Shown here one piece after another: positions 11,780 through 18,812 of a stretch of 37,412 nucleotides of DNA (the first letter of the stretch is position 1; every line of letters begins with the position of its first letter). The notes under the pieces are model-generated. The model had not been told where the DNA came from. It searched no databases and saw nothing but the letters and a program-made list of their open reading frames with translations. The position numbers and the translations under genes were made by a program. Origin of the DNA: Actinomycetes bacterium (GTDB lineage Bacteria; Actinomycetota; Acidimicrobiia; Acidimicrobiales; JAKAOS01); the NCBI GenBank assembly GCA_021791675.1, contig JAJYWE010000010.1, positions 1 to 37,412 of the forward strand, read 5' to 3'.

Positions 11780-13321
11780 TCAGGCGGGCTGCCCCGCGAC
11801 GCAGCCGAGTTGTCCCTCTGTGGGCTCTGCGCAGCAGAACCAGGGCTCCGTCAGCCCCGGTGCGGGCACTCCCGCGGCTCCCGCGCCCCGGAGCTCGCGG
11901 ACGGCGGGTTCGTCCAGCGCGTCGGCGACGAGATCGCAGATCTCGGGCCAGACCTCCGCCGGCCCGCTCGCCGCGCGTCCAGCCTCTTCGGCACGGGCGG
12001 CCAGCCGGGACTGGAGCGCGTCGAGTCGATGGTCCGCAGCAGACCAGGTCCAGCTCAGCCGGTTCGGGTCGTAGCCGTCCAGGCGTCGACGAGCCTCTGG
12101 CAGCTCGAGGAGGAGCGAGCCCGGCGGGACGAGGAGCCGGATCGAGTACTGAACGGGGTCAGTGGCGGGGACAAGCCCGTGCGCGGCGGTGAAACGGAGG
12201 AGGTCCACGACCGAGGCCGCGGTTGTCCAGGGCGTGAAGGGGAGCCAGGACGGGCGGACGGTGACGCCGTGGCCGGCGAGCAGGTCGACGGCCCGGCTCG
12301 CGTCGGCGCGGGTGTGGCCCTTGCCGAGGAGCGCGAGGACGGCGTCGTCAGTCGTCTCGAGCGCCGACACGACGAAGGCAAGGCCCTGGTGAGCCCAGCG
12401 CGCGACGAGGTCGTCGTGACGGAGCAGGTGGGTGACCTTCGCGGTCACGTCGAAGGTCACCTCGGGGAAGGCACCGTGCACGGCGTCGACGACCCGCTCG
12501 GCGTGCCGGGGCACGTTCAGGAAGTCCGGGTCGCCAAAGGTGACGTGGCGCGCGCCGAGTGCGACAAGGGACTCGACGTCCGCGACGACGTCGTCGACCG
12601 GGACTCGCCGGACGCGCCCGGCGTAGACGACGGGGACCGGGCAGTGCCGGCAGCGTTCGGCGCACCCGGTCGTTGCCTCCACATAGCCGGCGAGGTGCTC
12701 GCCGTCCCGGGTCGAGAGCCGGGCGTAGGCTCCGAGATTCGCGAGCCCTTGGCGGTCGGGGACGAGACCGGGCCTGCGGCGCCCGAGCTCGACCCGCACG
12801 GCCGGCTCGCTGGCGGGCCGGCCCGACCCGCCCGCATCCGACGAGGACGCCGCCGTGGAGAGGGCGCCCGAGGGGGGGGTCGGGGGCGACGAGCCCCCGT
12901 GCGACGAGCCCCCGTGCGACGAGCCCCCCGGCGCGCGGACCTGCGACCGGGCGCTCCCTGCCGCGAGCTCGACGAGCCCGTCCAGGTACTCGCCCGCCAG
13001 GGCGACGTCCGCCACGCCAGCGAGGTCGGCACTGTCGGCGAGGGTCGCGTAGAGGCCGTAGAGGCAGACGACCAAGTCGGGCTGGCGCTCCCGCGCGCGC
13101 CGGAGCAGGGGGACGGCGAGGCGCATGGCCGTGTGCATCGGCACCGACACGGCGAGGAGCTCCGCCCAGCCGAGGGACGCGTCGTCCGCAGCGCCCCAGG
13201 GTCGCTCGTGGAGGTCGACGGTGCGGACCTCGTGGCCGGCACGGCGGAGCGCCGCAGCGGGGGTGGCGAGGTGCAGCGGCTGGTGCCCCAGCTCGTAGGT
13301 CGAGACGAGGAGGACCCTCAC
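11780..13321 (-). CDS. B12-binding-domain radical SAM protein with CCAEP tail
   Basis: 513 residues. Residues 1-120 form a Rossmann-like cobalamin-binding-type domain (VRVLLVSTYELGHQ, LAVSVPMHT, LVVCLYG). A low-complexity linker (about 121-180) contains three GGSS repeats. The radical SAM core follows with CAERCRHC (Cys220, Cys224, Cys227) for the 4Fe-4S cluster, GDPDFLN, and later barrel strands. The C-terminus has EPWFCCAEP at 492-500, the hallmark of the CUAEP/CCAEP-tail radical SAM family, in which some members have selenocysteine at the second position; here both codons are TGC. The reaction is unknown. The GTG start overlaps the ATP-grasp stop by four bases (GTGA), so the two should act in one pathway. 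A longer open frame upstream is the antisense shadow of nothing recognisable. Confidence 0.9.
   Translation of the reverse strand: MRVLLVSTYELGHQPLHLATPAAALRRAGHEVRTVDLHERPWGAADDASLGWAELLAVSVPMHTAMRLAVPLLRRARERQPDLVVCLYGLYATLADSADLAGVADVALAGEYLDGLVELAAGSARSQVRAPGGSSHGGSSHGGSSPPTPPSGALSTAASSSDAGGSGRPASEPAVRVELGRRRPGLVPDRQGLANLGAYARLSTRDGEHLAGYVEATTGCAERCRHCPVPVVYAGRVRRVPVDDVVADVESLVALGARHVTFGDPDFLNVPRHAERVVDAVHGAFPEVTFDVTAKVTHLLRHDDLVARWAHQGLAFVVSALETTDDAVLALLGKGHTRADASRAVDLLAGHGVTVRPSWLPFTPWTTAASVVDLLRFTAAHGLVPATDPVQYSIRLLVPPGSLLLELPEARRRLDGYDPNRLSWTWSAADHRLDALQSRLAARAEEAGRAASGPAEVWPEICDLVADALDEPAVRELRGAGAAGVPAPGLTEPWFCCAEPTEGQLGCVAGQPA
12886..12930 (-). repeat. 15-bp tandem repeats coding the GGSSH linker
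   Basis: Three consecutive 15-base units of GCGACGAGCCCCCGT (third one diverging at its last two bases) lie inside the radical SAM gene. Read on the minus strand they encode GGSSH-GGSSH-GGSSP, around residues 132-146, between the cobalamin-type domain and the radical SAM core. Copy number probably changes by slippage without breaking the frame. Confidence 0.85.
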
Positions 13322-14607
13322 ACCGCCACCGCGGCGTCCGCCGGGACCGGGTCGACGAGGACGTCGAGCTCTGCCCAGGCACGCCGGAGCGCTTCCTCGA
13401 CGGCGGCGGGTCCTGCGCCCCTGGCGAAGACGAAGCCGAGGTAGCGGTCGCCCTCGGGGAGAGGCGCGACGCGCCGACCCGCCGCGATGGTGAGCTCGAC
13501 CCCGACGATGCCGGGCAGGGCGCTCGCTGCCTCGACCCCGCTCACACCCCGGAGGACCCCGGCGACGGGAACCGGCAGCATCAGCACCCCGGCGGCCGAG
13601 CCGAGCGTCGCAGGGCCAGGCGGCGGGTTGCCGAGCGCGTTCCGGAGCACCAGCTCCTCGAGCGAGCAGCCGGTGACGCCGGACCCGCCGGTTGCGAAGT
13701 CGAGCGCCCGACTGCACCGACCCCCGATGGTGCGCGCAGCGACCTCGAGGAGGACCGGCGTCCCGTCCGGCGTGATGCGGAGCTCCGCGTGGACGGGGCC
13801 GGAGCGCAGCCCGAGGGCGGCACACGCGGCGCCCACCCGCTCGGCGCTCGCGTCCTGCACCGGCTCGGGGAGGCGGGAGGGCGTGACGTAGATCGTCTCG
13901 GCGAAGAAGGGTCCCTCGAGCGGATCGGGCTTGTCGAACAGCGCGAGCACCTCGAGGCGGCCGTCGGCGAGGAGCGCCTCCAGGGCCACCTCCCCGCCGG
14001 GCACGTACGCTTCGGCGAGGAGTCCGCCGCCGCCCCCGACCTCCGCGATGCCGGCGCTCCGGGCGAGTGCCGCTTCGAGCGCAGCGGGGTCGTCCGCCCG
14101 GATGACGCCCCGGCTCCCCGACAGTCCTCGTGGCTTCACGACGCAGGGCAGGCCGACGGACTCGATGACGTGCTCGACGAGCGGAACGAGCCCCGGCGTC
14201 CCGCCCGGCTCGGCGAGCGGTGGGAGCTCGAGCCAAGCCGGCTGGACGACGCCCGCAGCGTCGAGGCACCTGCGCAAGAGGGCCTTGTCGCGGGTCGCGG
14301 CGAGTGCGTCGAGGGGGTTGTGCGCGAGCCCGAGCGCCTCCGCCGCGTGGCCCGCTGCCTCGAGGCCCTGGTCGTCCACGGCGACGACCGCGTCCACGCC
14401 GAGGGCGGCGACGGCCGTCGCCATCCTCGATGCCGCTTCCTCCGGCGCAGCGAAGTCGACCACGACCGGTGGGTGTGGCATGCGCCCGGCGAGGGCCTGG
14501 TCCTCCTCGCAGGCCACGACCACGTCGACCCCGAGCCGCCGCGCCGCTGCGAGGAAGTCCGCTGCCCGGTAGGTCGAGCTCGGCAGCAGCAGGAGGATTC
14601 GGGGCAC
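13318..14607 (-). CDS. ATP-grasp enzyme, partner of CCAEP radical SAM protein
   Basis: 429 residues with the layout of a carbamoyl-phosphate-synthase-like ATP-grasp ligase. A preATP-grasp Rossmann region (VPRILLLLPSSTYRAADFL, VVVDFA, AVVAVDDQG) covers 1-95. NPLDALAATRDKALLRRCL (97-115), VVKPRGLSGSRGV (156-168) and the AEAYVPGGEVALEALL strand (198-213) form the nucleotide site. GPVHAELRI and VLLEVAARTIGG (270-296) supply metal-binding Glu residues. A C-terminal domain of about 110 residues follows. Such enzymes couple a carboxylate to an amine through an acyl phosphate; the substrates here are unknown. The GTG start has AGGA upstream at a very short spacing, and AATGAT six bases before it could be a -10 of a leaderless message. 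It is divergent from the Fe-S carrier gene. Confidence 0.88.
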   Translation of the reverse strand: MPRILLLLPSSTYRAADFLAAARRLGVDVVVACEEDQALAGRMPHPPVVVDFAAPEEAASRMATAVAALGVDAVVAVDDQGLEAAGHAAEALGLAHNPLDALAATRDKALLRRCLDAAGVVQPAWLELPPLAEPGGTPGLVPLVEHVIESVGLPCVVKPRGLSGSRGVIRADDPAALEAALARSAGIAEVGGGGGLLAEAYVPGGEVALEALLADGRLEVLALFDKPDPLEGPFFAETIYVTPSRLPEPVQDASAERVGAACAALGLRSGPVHAELRITPDGTPVLLEVAARTIGGRCSRALDFATGGSGVTGCSLEELVLRNALGNPPPGPATLGSAAGVLMLPVPVAGVLRGVSGVEAASALPGIVGVELTIAAGRRVAPLPEGDRYLGFVFARGAGPAAVEEALRRAWAELDVLVDPVPADAAVAV

Positions 14608-14710
14608 GGTCCTATCATTGCCGTGGCAGGCACCGGTGCCGGCCGGCGGCCGCCGAGCCGAGGATCCGGCTCGGACCGGCCGGCGAGCGTCACGAGATCG
14701 GAGGCTGCCC
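14608..14710. promoter_or_regulatory. Divergent promoter region, ATP-grasp / nfu
   Basis: These 103 bases separate the start codons of the minus-strand ATP-grasp gene and the plus-strand Fe-S carrier gene, so promoters for both must lie here or inside them. Leftward, AATGAT sits at leaderless distance from the GTG. Rightward, TATCAT (14613-14618) is the only AT-richer hexamer, without a clear -35. GGAGG six bases before ATG 14711 is a good ribosome site. Confidence 0.35.
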
Positions 14711-15328
14711 ATGACGACCGAAGCCCAGGAGCTGACCCTCGAGGTGACGGAGGCGGCAAGGGAAGCCGTGCTCGCGCTCCGTGCCGAGGAGTCGGAGGCC
14801 GAGTCGCTCGCCCTGTGGCTCGAGGTCACCGGTGCGGCGGGCGGCGCGTATCGCTACGACCTGTACTTCGAAGCGCTCGCAGACCGGGGCCCCGGCGACG
14901 CCGTCGTGAGCGCCGGTGGGCTCTCGCTGGTCATCCCCGAAGCGAGCGTGGCTGCGCTCGACGGTGCGACCCTCGACGTCTCCGAGCTCGACGGTGGGCT
15001 CGTGCTCCGCAACCCGAACGTGCCTCCCGGCCAGGCTCAGGGGGACCTGTCCTCGGAGGCAGCCCAGCTGGTCCTTCGCGTCCTCGAGGAGGAGATCAAC
15101 CCGTCCATCGCCATGCACGGCGGGCGGGCGGACCTGGTCTCCGTGGAGGACGGCGTCGCCTACCTCAGGCTCTCCGGCGGCTGCCAGGGCTGTGGGCTCG
15201 CATCGGTCACCCTCTCCCAGGGGATCGAGGTCGCGATCAAGGACGCGGTGCCGGAGATCGTCTCCGTCGTGGACGTCACCGACCACGCGGGCGGCGCCAA
15301 CCCGTACTACGAGCCCGCCAAGAAGTAG
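14711..15328 (+). CDS. nfuA: NfuA/NifU-type Fe-S cluster carrier protein
   Basis: 205 residues. The N-terminal part (about 8-105) has the A-type (IscA-like) fold pattern, with [17 protein letters not shown] and [13 protein letters not shown], but lacks the cluster cysteines, as in E. coli NfuA. The C-terminal part (about 114-195) is the NifU C-terminal domain with [15 protein letters not shown] and the cluster-binding CQGC (Cys158, Cys161). It should accept a 4Fe-4S cluster and hand it to client proteins. ATG 14711 follows GGAGG at six bases. It is divergent from the radical SAM pair, which needs such clusters, and is followed after 10 bases by aroC, so it may be the first gene of the shikimate transcript. 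Confidence 0.92.
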
Positions 15329-15338
15329 GCGGGAGGGA

Positions 15339-16517
15339 GTGCTGCGCTTCCTCACCGCCGGTGAGTCCCACGGCCGGGCGCTCGTGGTGGTGGTCGAGGG
15401 CCTCCCGGCCGGCCTGGAGGTGCGGACGGACGAGCTTGCAGGTGAGCTCGCGCGCCGTCGCCTCGGCTACGGGCGAGGGCCTCGGATGCGATTCGAGGCG
15501 GACGAGCTGACCCTCCTCGCCGGCGTTCGCCACGGCCGCACGCTCGGCTCGCCGGTCGCGATCGAGATCGCCAACACCGAGTGGCCGAAGTGGGTCGAGG
15601 AGATGTCGCCCGAGCCCGGCCGGACCGCAAAGCCCCTCACGCAGCCGCGCCCCGGGCACGCGGACCTCGCCGGTATGCAGAAGTACGGCTTCGACGACGC
15701 ACGCGACGTGCTCGAGCGCGCATCGGCCAGGGAGACGGCGGCCCGCGTGGCGGCGGGCTATCTCGCGAAGCGCCTGCTCGCAGAGCTGGGTGTCGCCGTG
15801 CTGTCACACGTCGTCGCGCTGGGCGGCGCGAGCGCGCAGGGGCGCCGGCCAGAGCCGGGCGACCTGGCGGCGGTGGATGCCTCGGCGGTCCGCTGTTTCG
15901 ACGTCGAGGCCGAGCAGGCCATGGTGGCCGAGGTCCGCGCAGCGGCGAAGGTCGGTGACTCCCTCGGCGGCGTCGCCGAGGTGCTGGCCTACGGGGTCCC
16001 GGTCGGGCTCGGGAGCCACGTCCACTGGGACCGGAAGCTGGACGGACTCATCGCGCAGGCGCTCATGAGCATCCAGGCGGTGAAGGCGGTCTGGTTCGGC
16101 GAGGGACTCGACGTCGCAGTGAAGCGAGGTTCGGTCGCGCACGATGCGATCGGCTGGGACCCGGAGCGCGGCGGCTACGTACGGGAGACTGCCCGCGCTG
16201 GCGGTGTCGAGGGAGGGATGTCGAGCGGCTCGCTGCTCGCCGTCTCGGCGGCGATGAAGCCCCTCGCGACGCTCAACCGGCCGGTGCTCTCCACGGTCGA
16301 CGTGGTGACCAAGGCCGAGACGAAGTCCTTCAAGGAGCGCACCGATGTCACCGCCGTTCCGGCGATGGGCGTGGTGGCAGAGTCGATGGTCGCGCTCGTG
16401 CTCGCTTCGGAAGCGCTCCGCAAGTTCGGGGGGGACTCGGTCGCGGAGTTGGTGCGCAACCACGCGGCGTTCCTCGCGGGCCTCGAGGGGGCTCTCACCA
16501 GCTCGGGCTCCCCGTGA
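15339..16517 (+). CDS. aroC: Chorismate synthase
   Basis: 392 residues, normal length for the FMN-dependent enzyme that removes phosphate from EPSP to give chorismate. Recognisable blocks are [12 protein letters not shown] at the start, [72 protein letters not shown] and [18 protein letters not shown]. The GTG at 15339 follows GGGAGGGA directly and opens exactly at the family N-terminus. It is first of four aro genes. The stop overlaps the next gene's first GTG as GTGA. Confidence 0.97.
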
Positions 16518-17134
16518 TCGAGCCGGGCACCGTGGGCGGGGAGCGCCCCGTGATCGAGCTGTGCCGTCCCCACCTCGCGCTCGCCGGGCTGCCCGGAGCC
16601 GGCAAGTCCGCCCTGGCGCCGCTCGTCGCCCGCCGCTTCGGGGTGCCCGCCGTCGACCTGGACCGGGCTATCGAGGCGCGCGTGGGGCTACCCGTCCCCG
16701 AGCTGGTCGCGCGGGACGAGGCGGACTTTCGCGTGCTCGAGGGAGAGGTACTGGAGGACTTGCTCGCGGCCGGGGCCCCGAGGGTGGTGGCGCTCGGGGG
16801 CGGCGCCGTGCTCGCGGCGGCGAACCGGGCCGCGCTCCGGCGGCGGGCCACGGTGGCGTGGCTTGCCTGCGCGCCGGCGGTGCTCGCAGCGCGGCTGTCG
16901 GGGGCCGGTGCAACGGCGCGACCGCTGCTCGCCGGCGATCTCCAGGATGCGCTGCGTCGTCTCGGCGCCGCGCGGGAGGCGGTCTACGAGGAGGTTGCCG
17001 ACCTCGTCGTCGACGCCGCCCAGCCCCTCGGCGTCATGGCCGACACCCTCGTCGAGGCGCTTCGCGTTCGGGGGTGGGGAGCGTCGCTGGTGGCCCCCGC
17101 ACCGGGCGTAGTCGAGGCAACGGCTCGCCCGTGA
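16514..17134 (+). CDS. aroK: Shikimate kinase
   Basis: 206 residues from GTG 16514, which overlaps the aroC stop, or 194 from GTG 16550, which has GGGGAG seven bases upstream. It phosphorylates shikimate with ATP. The Walker A motif is GLPGAGKS (25-32), the shikimate-binding DLD follows at about 48-50, FRVLEGEVL carries the substrate Arg, and LGGGAV is the conserved Gly-rich loop. The lid region around RPLL has the expected Arg. The core starts at about residue 17, so either start gives a full enzyme. Around the two GTGs the sequence CCCCGTGATCGAGC is repeated. Confidence 0.95.
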
Positions 17135-17256
17135 GCCCGGATCCGACGAGCTCGAGCTCCTTCCCGAGCGGGTTGACGGGTCTCGGTCCCGAGCCGAACG
17201 GCGACGAGCCCGCGACCGCAGGCACAACGAGGTCGGCGCCGCCCGGCGAGTCGGGG

Positions 17257-18315
17257 ATGTGGCGGGTCGACGTGGACCTCCCGGGTCGGCCCTACCCGGT
17301 GCTCGTGGGTCCCGGGGTTCGCAAACGCCTGGGCGAGGTCCTCCCCCCGGGCGTGCGCCGGCTCGCCCTGGTCACCCAGGCGAGCGTGCCCTGGACGCTC
17401 CCGGACGAGCTGCCCGTGGCGCGCTTCGAGATCCCGGACGGCGAGGTGGCGAAGTCCCTCGCGGTGGTCGGGGAGCTCTGCGGGCGCTTCGCCCGCGCCG
17501 GGATCACGCGTCGGGATGCGGTCGTCGGCCTCGGTGGGGGCGTGGTCACCGATGTCGCCGGTCTCGCTGCTGCCCTCTACCACCGCGGGATCCCCGTGGT
17601 CCACGTCGCGACGACGCTCCTCGCCCAGGTGGATGCAGCGATCGGCGGGAAGTGCGGGGTCAACCTCCCCGAGGGCAAGAACCTCGTCGGGGCGTTCTGG
17701 CAGCCGGCAGCGGTCCTCTGCGACACCGAGACCCTCCGCACCCTGCCGGCGGCCGAGCTGCGCAGCGGTCGGGGCGAGCTCGCGAAGTACGCCTTCCTCG
17801 GGGTCGGGGACCTCGAGACTCGGTCGATCGAGGAGCAGGTCGCCGCTTGTGTCGCGGTGAAGGCGAGTTTCGTGGTCGCCGACGAGCGCGAGGGTGGTCG
17901 TCGGGCGCTGCTCAACTACGGCCACACGCTCGCCCATGCCCTGGAGGCGGAGGGTCTCGCCGACGGAAGGCCGCTCCGCCACGGCGAGGCGGTCGGTGTC
18001 GGCCTCGCCTTCGCCGCGCGCTTGGCGGCGCACCTCGGGCGCATCGACGGCGAAGACGGCGACGTCGTGGCCGCGCACCTCCGGGTGCTCCACGCGCTCG
18101 GGCTCTCCGAGCGGCTGCCCGCAGGTGCGGACTGCGCTCGGCTGGTGTCCCTCATGGCCCGCGACAAGAAGGCCACGGATGGGCTCACGTTCGTCCTGGA
18201 CGGCCCGGCGGGCCTCGAGGTCGTGCCGGGGGTCCCGGCCGAGGTCGTCACCGAGGTGCTCGCCAGCCACCCTCGCGAGCCTGCGCCGCGTAACGGCGAC
18301 GGGCCGGAGCGGTGA
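17257..18315 (+). CDS. aroB: 3-dehydroquinate synthase
   Basis: 352 residues from ATG 17257, a typical length. It is the NAD- and metal-dependent enzyme converting DAHP to 3-dehydroquinate. Motifs are RPYPVLVG at the N-terminus, DGEVAKSL, VVGLGGGVVTDVAGLAA, TTLLAQVDAAIGGKCGVNLPEGKNLVGAF, ELRSGRGELAKYAFLG and LLNYGHTLAHALE with metal ligands. A GTG at 17131 overlapping the aroK stop as GTGA is in frame and would add 42 Pro/Ser/Gly-rich residues. I prefer 17257 because known AroB proteins begin near WRVDVDLPGRPYPVLVG, but co-translation from 17131 is plausible. Confidence 0.96.
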   Translation: MWRVDVDLPGRPYPVLVGPGVRKRLGEVLPPGVRRLALVTQASVPWTLPDELPVARFEIPDGEVAKSLAVVGELCGRFARAGITRRDAVVGLGGGVVTDVAGLAAALYHRGIPVVHVATTLLAQVDAAIGGKCGVNLPEGKNLVGAFWQPAAVLCDTETLRTLPAAELRSGRGELAKYAFLGVGDLETRSIEEQVAACVAVKASFVVADEREGGRRALLNYGHTLAHALEAEGLADGRPLRHGEAVGVGLAFAARLAAHLGRIDGEDGDVVAAHLRVLHALGLSERLPAGADCARLVSLMARDKKATDGLTFVLDGPAGLEVVPGVPAEVVTEVLASHPREPAPRNGDGPER

Positions 18316-18812
18316 CCGGACCGGCGCCCGGGATCGAGGGCCTCACTGGGGCGGGGCGCCTTCCCGGGGTCGAGCGCCCCCGAGTCCTCCTCCTCTCGGG
18401 GCCGAACCTCGACCTGCTCGGCGAGCGCCAGCCCGAGATCTACGGACGGGAGCGCCTCGCTGACCATGTCGCCCGCGCGACGGCGGCCGCACGCGCGCTC
18501 GGCCTCATGCTCTCGAGCGCGCAGCACACCGACGAGGCGTCCCTCGTCCGTGCGGTGCAGGGCGCCCGGCACGAGGCCGACGCGCTGGTCGTCAACGCCG
18601 GCGCGCTCACCCACTACTCGTGGGCGCTCGCAGACGCCCTCGCGACCTTCGACGGCCCGAAGGTCGAGCTCCATCTGTCGCACCCGGAGGCGCGAGAGCC
18701 CTGGCGGCACACCTCGGTGCTGGCGAGCGTGGTGGACGGCACGATCGCCGGCTTCGGTGGGATCGGCTACGAGCTCGCGATGCACGCCGTGTCCGCGCTG
18801 CTCAGGCCGTGA
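18312..18812 (+). CDS. aroQ: 3-dehydroquinate dehydratase, type II
   Basis: 166 residues. Type II dehydroquinase, dodecameric in known members, converting dehydroquinate to dehydroshikimate. The core starts at about residue 24: VLLLSGPNLDLLGERQPEIYG (with catalytic Arg and Tyr in the flexible loop), VVNAGALTHYSWALADAL, VELHLSHPEAREPWRHTSVLA with the catalytic His, and GFGGIGYELAM. The usual SNHEG block is altered to HTDEAS, and LSN to LSH; both are conservative in position but uncommon. The GTG start overlaps aroB by four bases. The first 22 residues are a Gly/Pro-rich extension. It ends the aro operon; a strong hairpin follows. Confidence 0.93.
   Translation: MTGPAPGIEGLTGAGRLPGVERPRVLLLSGPNLDLLGERQPEIYGRERLADHVARATAAARALGLMLSSAQHTDEASLVRAVQGARHEADALVVNAGALTHYSWALADALATFDGPKVELHLSHPEAREPWRHTSVLASVVDGTIAGFGGIGYELAMHAVSALLRP

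What the first reader, a model, noticed from the sequence alone, without database searches (positions are those of the whole stretch)
11780..14607. Two-gene cassette of ATP-grasp enzyme and CCAEP-tail B12 radical SAM protein
The radical SAM protein has a cobalamin-type N-terminal domain, CxxxCxxC at 220-227 and a C-terminal EPWFCCAEP. This tail marks a family in which the second Cys is selenocysteine in some members, suggesting a redox or metal role for the C-terminus. Its start overlaps the stop of an ATP-grasp ligase gene by four bases, and no other biosynthetic gene is adjacent on that strand. A ligase plus radical enzyme pair suggests a small-molecule or peptide modification pathway with unknown product. 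A Fe-S carrier gene is divergent from it.
Basis: partly seen in the sequence, partly recalled or inferred. Interest (0 to 1): 0.75.

Follow-up and report, generated by a model that had tools for sequence, protein, structure and literature searches.

The report
Radical-SAM, peptide-ligase and Fe–S-carrier module
A radical enzyme that ends in two cysteines (or cysteine plus selenocysteine) sits in one operon with a peptide-bond-forming ligase and divergent from an iron–sulfur carrier, and relatives in many bacterial phyla carry the same parts together, which points to an undescribed pathway tied to iron–sulfur metabolism whose product is unknown.

Summary
In detail: a 429-aa ATP-grasp gene (14607–13318, minus) overlaps a 513-aa radical SAM gene (13321–11780, minus) by GTGA; CxxxCxxC lies at 220–227 and EPWFCCAEP at 492–500. 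The radical SAM protein belongs to NCBIfam NF040546 (CUAEP/CCAEP-tail); its closest characterised kin is ArsL of arsinothricin synthesis. The tail is invariant in 98 of 98 complete relatives, half of which read UGA with a SECIS-like hairpin. The ATP-grasp protein is an L-amino-acid-ligase type. Neither refuting condition was met. In 397 genomes of the phylum, 22 of 23 with the radical SAM gene have the ligase, against about 11 of 374 others. In 29 genomes from many phyla where the two were not adjacent, 27 still carry the ligase. The divergent Nfu-type Fe–S carrier is a third member: it adjoins the ligase in about 71 of 77 ligase loci, and where it is missing other Fe–S or iron genes often sit beside the radical SAM gene. 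No arsenic genes, exporters or precursor peptides recur. Best reading: a three-part module in which the ligase makes an amide-linked small molecule that the ArsL-like enzyme modifies, for an intracellular role in iron–sulfur metabolism. Linkage is shown; the chemistry is inferred.

The parts
11780..13321 (-). CUAEP/CCAEP-tail radical SAM protein (Cys form), 513 aa, GTG start
   Evidence: NF040546 511.8 bits over cut-off 500; PF04055; AlphaFold mean pLDDT 89.6; PDB fold matches AprD4, TsrM
12641..12664 (-). codons 220-227, CxxxCxxC [4Fe-4S]/SAM motif (CAERCRHC)
   Evidence: translation; C220, C224, C227 invariant in 48 homologues
11822..11848 (-). codons 492-500, EPWFCCAEP tail; second Cys (TGC) is the Sec/UGA site in relatives
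   Evidence: E492, W494, C496, C497, E499, P500 invariant in 48 homologues; tail in 98/98 complete homologues
13318..14607 (-). ATP-grasp ligase of L-amino-acid-ligase type, 429 aa, GTG start; stop overlaps the radical SAM start (GTGA, 13318-13321)
   Evidence: PF13535 ATP-grasp_4 and PF18603 LAL_C2; best PDB sequence and fold match 3vot BL00235
14711..15328 (+). Nfu-type Fe-S carrier (degenerate HesB/A-type N-terminal domain plus NifU domain with GGCQGCG), divergent from the ligase
   Evidence: PF01106 75.5 bits; TIGR03341 93 bits against cut-off 269; next to the ligase in 71 of 77 distinct ligase loci
14608..14710 (.). intergenic stretch shared by the divergent ligase and Nfu genes; a shared control region is inferred only
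   Evidence: the divergent arrangement is conserved in most Actinomycetota and Chloroflexota loci

Best explanation
This is a three-component module: an L-amino-acid-ligase-type ATP-grasp enzyme, a CUAEP/CCAEP-tail radical SAM enzyme of the ArsL superfamily, and a dedicated Nfu-type Fe-S carrier. Proposed working: the ligase joins two amino-acid-like substrates through an acyl-phosphate; [quoted passage not shown] Nfu supplies or repairs Fe-S clusters for the pathway, or receives its product. The product is probably an intracellular small molecule serving iron or Fe-S metabolism rather than an exported antibiotic. Shown: gene linkage, co-occurrence, tail conservation, UGA/SECIS-like signal, family membership. 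Inferred: reaction order, ACP chemistry, substrate atom and biological role.
For: Co-occurrence: in 397 genomes of the phylum, 22 of 23 radical SAM genomes have the ligase against about 11 of 374 others (Fisher p about 2e-28, not corrected for phylogeny). Of 29 genomes in many phyla where the two were not adjacent, 27 have the ligase elsewhere. The asymmetry (radical SAM implies ligase, not the reverse) suggests that the radical step acts on or after the ligase step. Linkage: 47 of 100 loci have the ligase directly upstream on the same strand, ten of them (window included) with a 4-base overlap. Nfu adjoins the ligase in 71/77 loci and in 12 of 20 further loci where ligase and radical SAM are unlinked, one more having an iron-trafficking gene there. 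Fe-S/iron genes are concentrated within 2.5 kb of the radical SAM gene (53/88 upstream, 12/89 downstream) against 0-3 per more distant bin, including SUF, IscU/IscA, CDGSH, Fe-trafficking and Mrp genes. ArsL kinship: 224 bits against 36 for the next model, and its tandem-Cys tail aligns with this one. Ligase type by sequence and fold. Two RCCLKC-tail (ArsL-family) plasmid clusters also carry an LAL-like ATP-grasp gene.
Against: ACP transfer by ArsL is itself only predicted in the paper read (PMC8552651), and 28-30% identity does not fix chemistry. The ligase-Nfu pair exists without the radical SAM gene in about 10 genomes, so that pair has a function of its own. Three Nitrospirota loci have ligase and radical SAM but no neighbouring Fe-S gene. 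Gene linkage does not show substrate flow.
Confidence: 0.45

Rival explanations
1. Organo-arsenic (or other metalloid) amino-acid pathway: the radical SAM enzyme makes an arsinothricin-like amino acid from As(III) held by the tail, and the ligase turns it into a peptide antibiotic.
For: ArsL is the nearest characterised family; Firmicutes RCCLKC-tail plasmid clusters carry arsenic genes (ArsM and/or ArsN, ArsR) and an LAL-like ATP-grasp gene.
Against: Ars genes are almost absent near 100 CUAEP loci: ArsB-like in 2, ArsR and distant ArsM in 1. No recurring exporter. The tail has two Cys/Sec, not the three of RCCLKC. Fe-S genes, not ars genes, recur.
Confidence: 0.13
2. Sulfur-inserting, self-sacrificing radical SAM enzyme (lipoyl-synthase-like) whose auxiliary cluster is rebuilt by the dedicated Nfu.
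For: Nfu linkage; lipB-lipA-aceE genes follow the radical SAM gene in a Chloroflexota group and aceE is near it in several Acidimicrobiia. NfuA renewal of the lipoyl synthase cluster is established knowledge (recalled, not checked here).
Against: Only five Cys are invariant in 48 homologues (220, 224, 227, 496, 497), too few for a classical auxiliary [4Fe-4S] site. Nfu stays with the ligase where the radical SAM gene is absent.
Confidence: 0.15
3. Protein modification: ligase and radical SAM enzyme modify a protein, possibly Nfu itself, rather than make a free metabolite.
For: Ligase-Nfu is the tightest pair; Dph2 puts an ACP group on a protein (PMC8552651); the Nfu C-terminus DVTDHA.G.NPY...KK is strongly conserved.
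Against: LAL-type ATP-grasp enzymes act on free amino acids. In a Bacteroidota genome (L095) the radical SAM gene sits in a SUF operon and no ligase was found.
Confidence: 0.12
4. RiPP-like modification of a ribosomal peptide.
For: ATP-grasp plus radical SAM pairs occur in RiPP clusters (general knowledge).
Against: No short gene recurs beside the pair among called genes (genes under about 70 aa were not called); the ligase is of free-amino-acid type.
Confidence: 0.04

Closest known systems
NCBIfam NF040546, CUAEP/CCAEP-tail radical SAM (seleno)protein
   Same: Full-length match over the curated cut-off (511.8 against 500 bits), tail included
   Different: Nothing; it is a member (Cys form). 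The family has a name but no paper mentioning CUAEP or CCAEP was found in the open-access library, and NF040546 is absent from the text of a 2026 selenoproteome review (PMC13188914).
ArsL, arsinothricin biosynthesis radical SAM enzyme (NF040542; PMC8552651)
   Same: Whole-length homology, CxxxCxxC, many invariant core residues, tandem Cys near the C-terminus
   Different: 28-30% identity, RCCLKC against WFC[C/U]AEP tail, 224 bits against a cut-off of 450, no ars genes nearby
L-amino acid ligases BL00235 (3vot) and BacD
   Same: Domain set, fold, and shared motifs (KP, GxE, HxE, ExAAR)
   Different: 27% identity to BL00235; own clade with signature FDKPDPLxGPxFxETxYVTPSR; substrates unknown
NfuA Fe-S carrier
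   Same: NifU-like domain with CxxC and A-type-like N-terminal domain
   Different: 93 bits against the NfuA cut-off of 269; conserved C-terminal ...NPY...KK extension

Membership tests
NF040546 CUAEP/CCAEP-tail radical SAM | score over curated cut-off 500 bits, full length | tested here: met
   511.8 bits, profile 1-467 of 468
NF040546 CUAEP/CCAEP-tail radical SAM | C[CU]AEP tail | tested here: met
   EPWFCCAEP at 492-500; invariant in relatives
ArsL (NF040542) | score over cut-off 450 bits | tested here: not met
   224.3 bits
ArsL (NF040542) | RCCLKC tail | tested here: not met
   WFCCAEP instead
ArsL (NF040542) | arsenic gene context | tested here: not met
   ars-like genes in about 3 of 100 family loci
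ArsL (NF040542) | ACP transfer from SAM | not testable with these tools
   needs enzyme assay
Cobalamin-dependent radical SAM enzymes | cobalamin-type N-terminal domain fold | tested here: met
   PF02310 30.3 bits, just under cut-off 32.1; fold matches AprD4, TsrM, OxsB
Cobalamin-dependent radical SAM enzymes | binds cobalamin | not testable with these tools
   top fold match AprD4 is, from memory, a cobalamin-free enzyme with this fold, so fold alone does not decide
L-amino acid ligase (ATP-grasp) | ATP-grasp plus LAL C-terminal domain and catalytic motifs | tested here: met
   PF13535, PF18603; 3vot alignment; five top fold hits are LALs
NfuA (TIGR03341 equivalog) | score over cut-off 269 bits | tested here: not met
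   93.1 bits; Nfu-like subfamily, not NfuA proper
Selenoprotein | in-frame UGA in this gene | tested here: not met
   window codon is TGC; its genome nevertheless has selA and selB

The most novel reading that the evidence does not exclude
The module makes a previously unknown small molecule (or protein modification) dedicated to Fe-S cluster or iron metabolism across many bacterial phyla, using a radical SAM enzyme whose C-terminal Cys-Cys/Cys-Sec pair presents the atom to be alkylated.
Probability: 0.35. Interest if true: 0.87.

Novelty: new variant of a known kind. Interest (0 to 1): 0.64.

Why it matters
It turns a curated but unexplained selenoprotein family into a testable three-part pathway. 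Co-occurrence names the near-obligate partner (the ligase), and Fe–S genes recur beside both in several phyla and arrangements. If right, there is an undescribed metabolite or modification linked to iron–sulfur metabolism, and a new role for a Cys/Sec tail in radical SAM chemistry.

Tried and rejected
Arsenic context: rejected as the general role, ars genes in about 3 of 100 loci. Ribosomal peptide substrate: no recurring short gene. Exporter/antibiotic cluster: no transporter recurs outside a few Acidimicrobiia loci with ABC genes. RNA element in the window: no Rfam match. Literature: nothing on CUAEP, CCAEP, RCCLKC, selenoprotein + radical SAM + ATP-grasp, or NfuA + ATP-grasp + radical SAM; two Haft papers cited in the review are not held, so prior notice of this module there cannot be excluded. 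Tail-to-cluster distance in the predicted model could not be measured (coordinates not given). Several small clusters (c9, c14, c24) are opposite-strand shadows of the Nfu gene and were discarded.

Full report
WHAT IS THERE. On the minus strand, a 429-aa ATP-grasp gene (14607..13318) overlaps by GTGA the start of a 513-aa radical SAM gene (13321..11780). The radical SAM protein has CxxxCxxC at 220-227 and EPWFCCAEP at 492-500, with 13 more residues after it. It scores 511.8 bits against NCBIfam NF040546, 'CUAEP/CCAEP-tail radical SAM (seleno)protein' (cut-off 500); the second-best model is ArsL of arsinothricin biosynthesis with 224 bits, and the third scores 36. The ATP-grasp protein has the L-amino-acid-ligase C-terminal domain and matches ligase BL00235 (3vot) best by sequence and by predicted fold. 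The divergent plus-strand gene 14711-15328 is an Nfu-type Fe–S carrier, too far from NfuA proper to be called that (93 against 269 bits).

THE TAIL. An HMM search of 397 genomes of the phylum found the family in 23; a scan of GTDB representatives found at least 557 relatives, of which 80 loci were kept, using motifs outside the tail. Over 100 non-redundant loci, every one of the 98 with a complete 3' end has [WY][FY]C[CU][AS]EP; a divergent relative (36% identity) still ends WFCCAAP. In 48 aligned homologues only five cysteines are invariant: the three of the cluster motif and the two of the tail. In 49 of 98 genes the second tail Cys is an in-frame TGA. A hairpin of six or more pairs with an AG(U/G)U apical loop starting exactly 20 bases after the TGA is found in 32 of 49 TGA genes and 1 of 49 Cys genes, with several pair types at most stem positions: a bacterial SECIS-like element. 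SelB over cut-off was found in 12 of 14 TGA genomes against 2 of 7 Cys genomes once the window's own SelB is counted (p about 0.02). Cys/Sec exchange needs 13 changes on the tree, at least 9 on well-supported branches. The window's genome has selA and selB but uses Cys here. The Thermomicrobium roseum record WP_012643191 stops at such a TGA in its annotation.

THE PARTNERS. The ligase family (alignment A3, signature FDKPDPLxGPxFxETxYVTPSR) lies directly upstream of the radical SAM gene on the same strand in 47 of 100 loci (ten of them, the window included, with a 4-base overlap) and elsewhere nearby in 14 more. In the 397-genome sample, 22 of the 23 radical SAM genomes have the ligase, including four where it is on another contig or far away, while only about 11 of the other 374 do; one of those 11 proved to carry a divergent radical SAM gene beside the ligase. 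In 29 genomes from Actinomycetota, Chloroflexota, Acidobacteriota, Nitrospirota, Nitrospinota, Poribacteria, Gemmatimonadota, Bacteroidota and others where the pair was not adjacent, 27 have the ligase elsewhere. The Fisher test ignores relatedness and the p-value should not be taken literally, but the breadth of phyla makes shared ancestry alone an unlikely cause. Radical SAM implies ligase; ligase does not imply radical SAM.

The Nfu gene is the third member. It adjoins the ligase in 71 of 77 distinct ligase loci with sufficient flank (duplicates removed by hand), usually divergently, on the same strand in Rokubacteria, convergently elsewhere. It stays with the ligase in nearly all fetched genomes that lack the radical SAM gene or have it elsewhere in the genome, and in 12 of 20 further unlinked loci, with an Fe-trafficking gene in one more. 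In two Acidimicrobiaceae the Nfu gene sits beside the radical SAM gene instead (L049, L074). Within 2.5 kb of the radical SAM gene Fe–S or iron genes occur in 53 of 88 upstream and 12 of 89 downstream bins, against 0-3 in each more distant bin. Apart from Nfu these include a SUF operon in a Bacteroidota genome, IscU and IscA in Poribacteria, SufA in Nitrospinota, CDGSH in Rokubacteria, the Fe(2+)-trafficking family in Ktedonobacteria and an Acidobacteriota genome, and Mrp in one actinobacterial genome. DUF169, with four invariant cysteines, is near the radical SAM gene in 17 loci.

HOW IT MAY WORK. From the anatomy, the ligase would form an amide between amino-acid-like substrates and the radical SAM enzyme would act on or after that step; the one-way dependence supports this order but does not prove it. 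For the radical step, whole-length homology to ArsL, shared core residues and the tandem Cys in both tails make transfer of the 3-amino-3-carboxypropyl group the leading guess, with the tail holding the acceptor atom. ArsL's own reaction is described as predicted in the paper read (PMC8552651). Two RCCLKC-tail plasmid clusters also carry an LAL-like ATP-grasp gene, so the pairing of the two enzyme kinds may be older than the split between the families. What differs is the context: arsenic genes there, Fe–S genes here. No exporter, regulator or precursor peptide recurs, which favours an intracellular product.

LIMITS. Gene calling was by an in-house codon-usage script; genes under about 70 aa were not called. 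Many loci are metagenome-assembled and fragmentary. Cobalamin binding cannot be told from fold alone. No result here identifies the product. The family itself is already named by NCBI; what is added here is the three-part module, the one-way dependence and the Fe–S context.

Noticed in passing
L137:7003-8622 (-) and L138:4252-5775 (+): In two genomes of one genus without the radical SAM gene, the Nfu domain beside the ligase is fused to a Cys/Met-metabolism PLP enzyme (PF01053 + PF01106), a family that also handles the 2-aminobutyrate unit; it may be a substitute for the radical SAM step.
   Followed up: partly
L080:2446-3162 (+), L119:9177-9911 (+) and about 15 other loci: DUF169 (PF02596) proteins recur next to the module and have four invariant cysteines, which suggests a metal or Fe-S protein.
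   Followed up: partly
L052, L059, L061, L062, L064, L072, L086, L101 downstream of the radical SAM gene; L058, L083, L105, L109, L111 upstream: lipB-lipA-aceE (and E2, lpd) follow the module in a Chloroflexota group, and aceE lies near it on the opposite strand in several Acidimicrobiia: a possible link to lipoyl or pyruvate dehydrogenase metabolism.
   Followed up: no
L128:5935-7371 (Thermomicrobium roseum plasmid, WP_012643191.1): The annotated CUAEP protein ends at WFC because a TGA is read as stop; the frame continues AEP, so a Sec reading is likely.
   Followed up: yes
L149:2131-5147 (window's own genome): selA and selB are present although the window's radical SAM gene uses Cys; other selenoproteins of this genome were not sought.
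   Followed up: partly
window 15341-18812: Genes that read as aroC, aroK, aroB and aroQ follow the Nfu gene on the plus strand; chorismate synthase is near the module in at least L053, L082 and L141 too.
   Followed up: no
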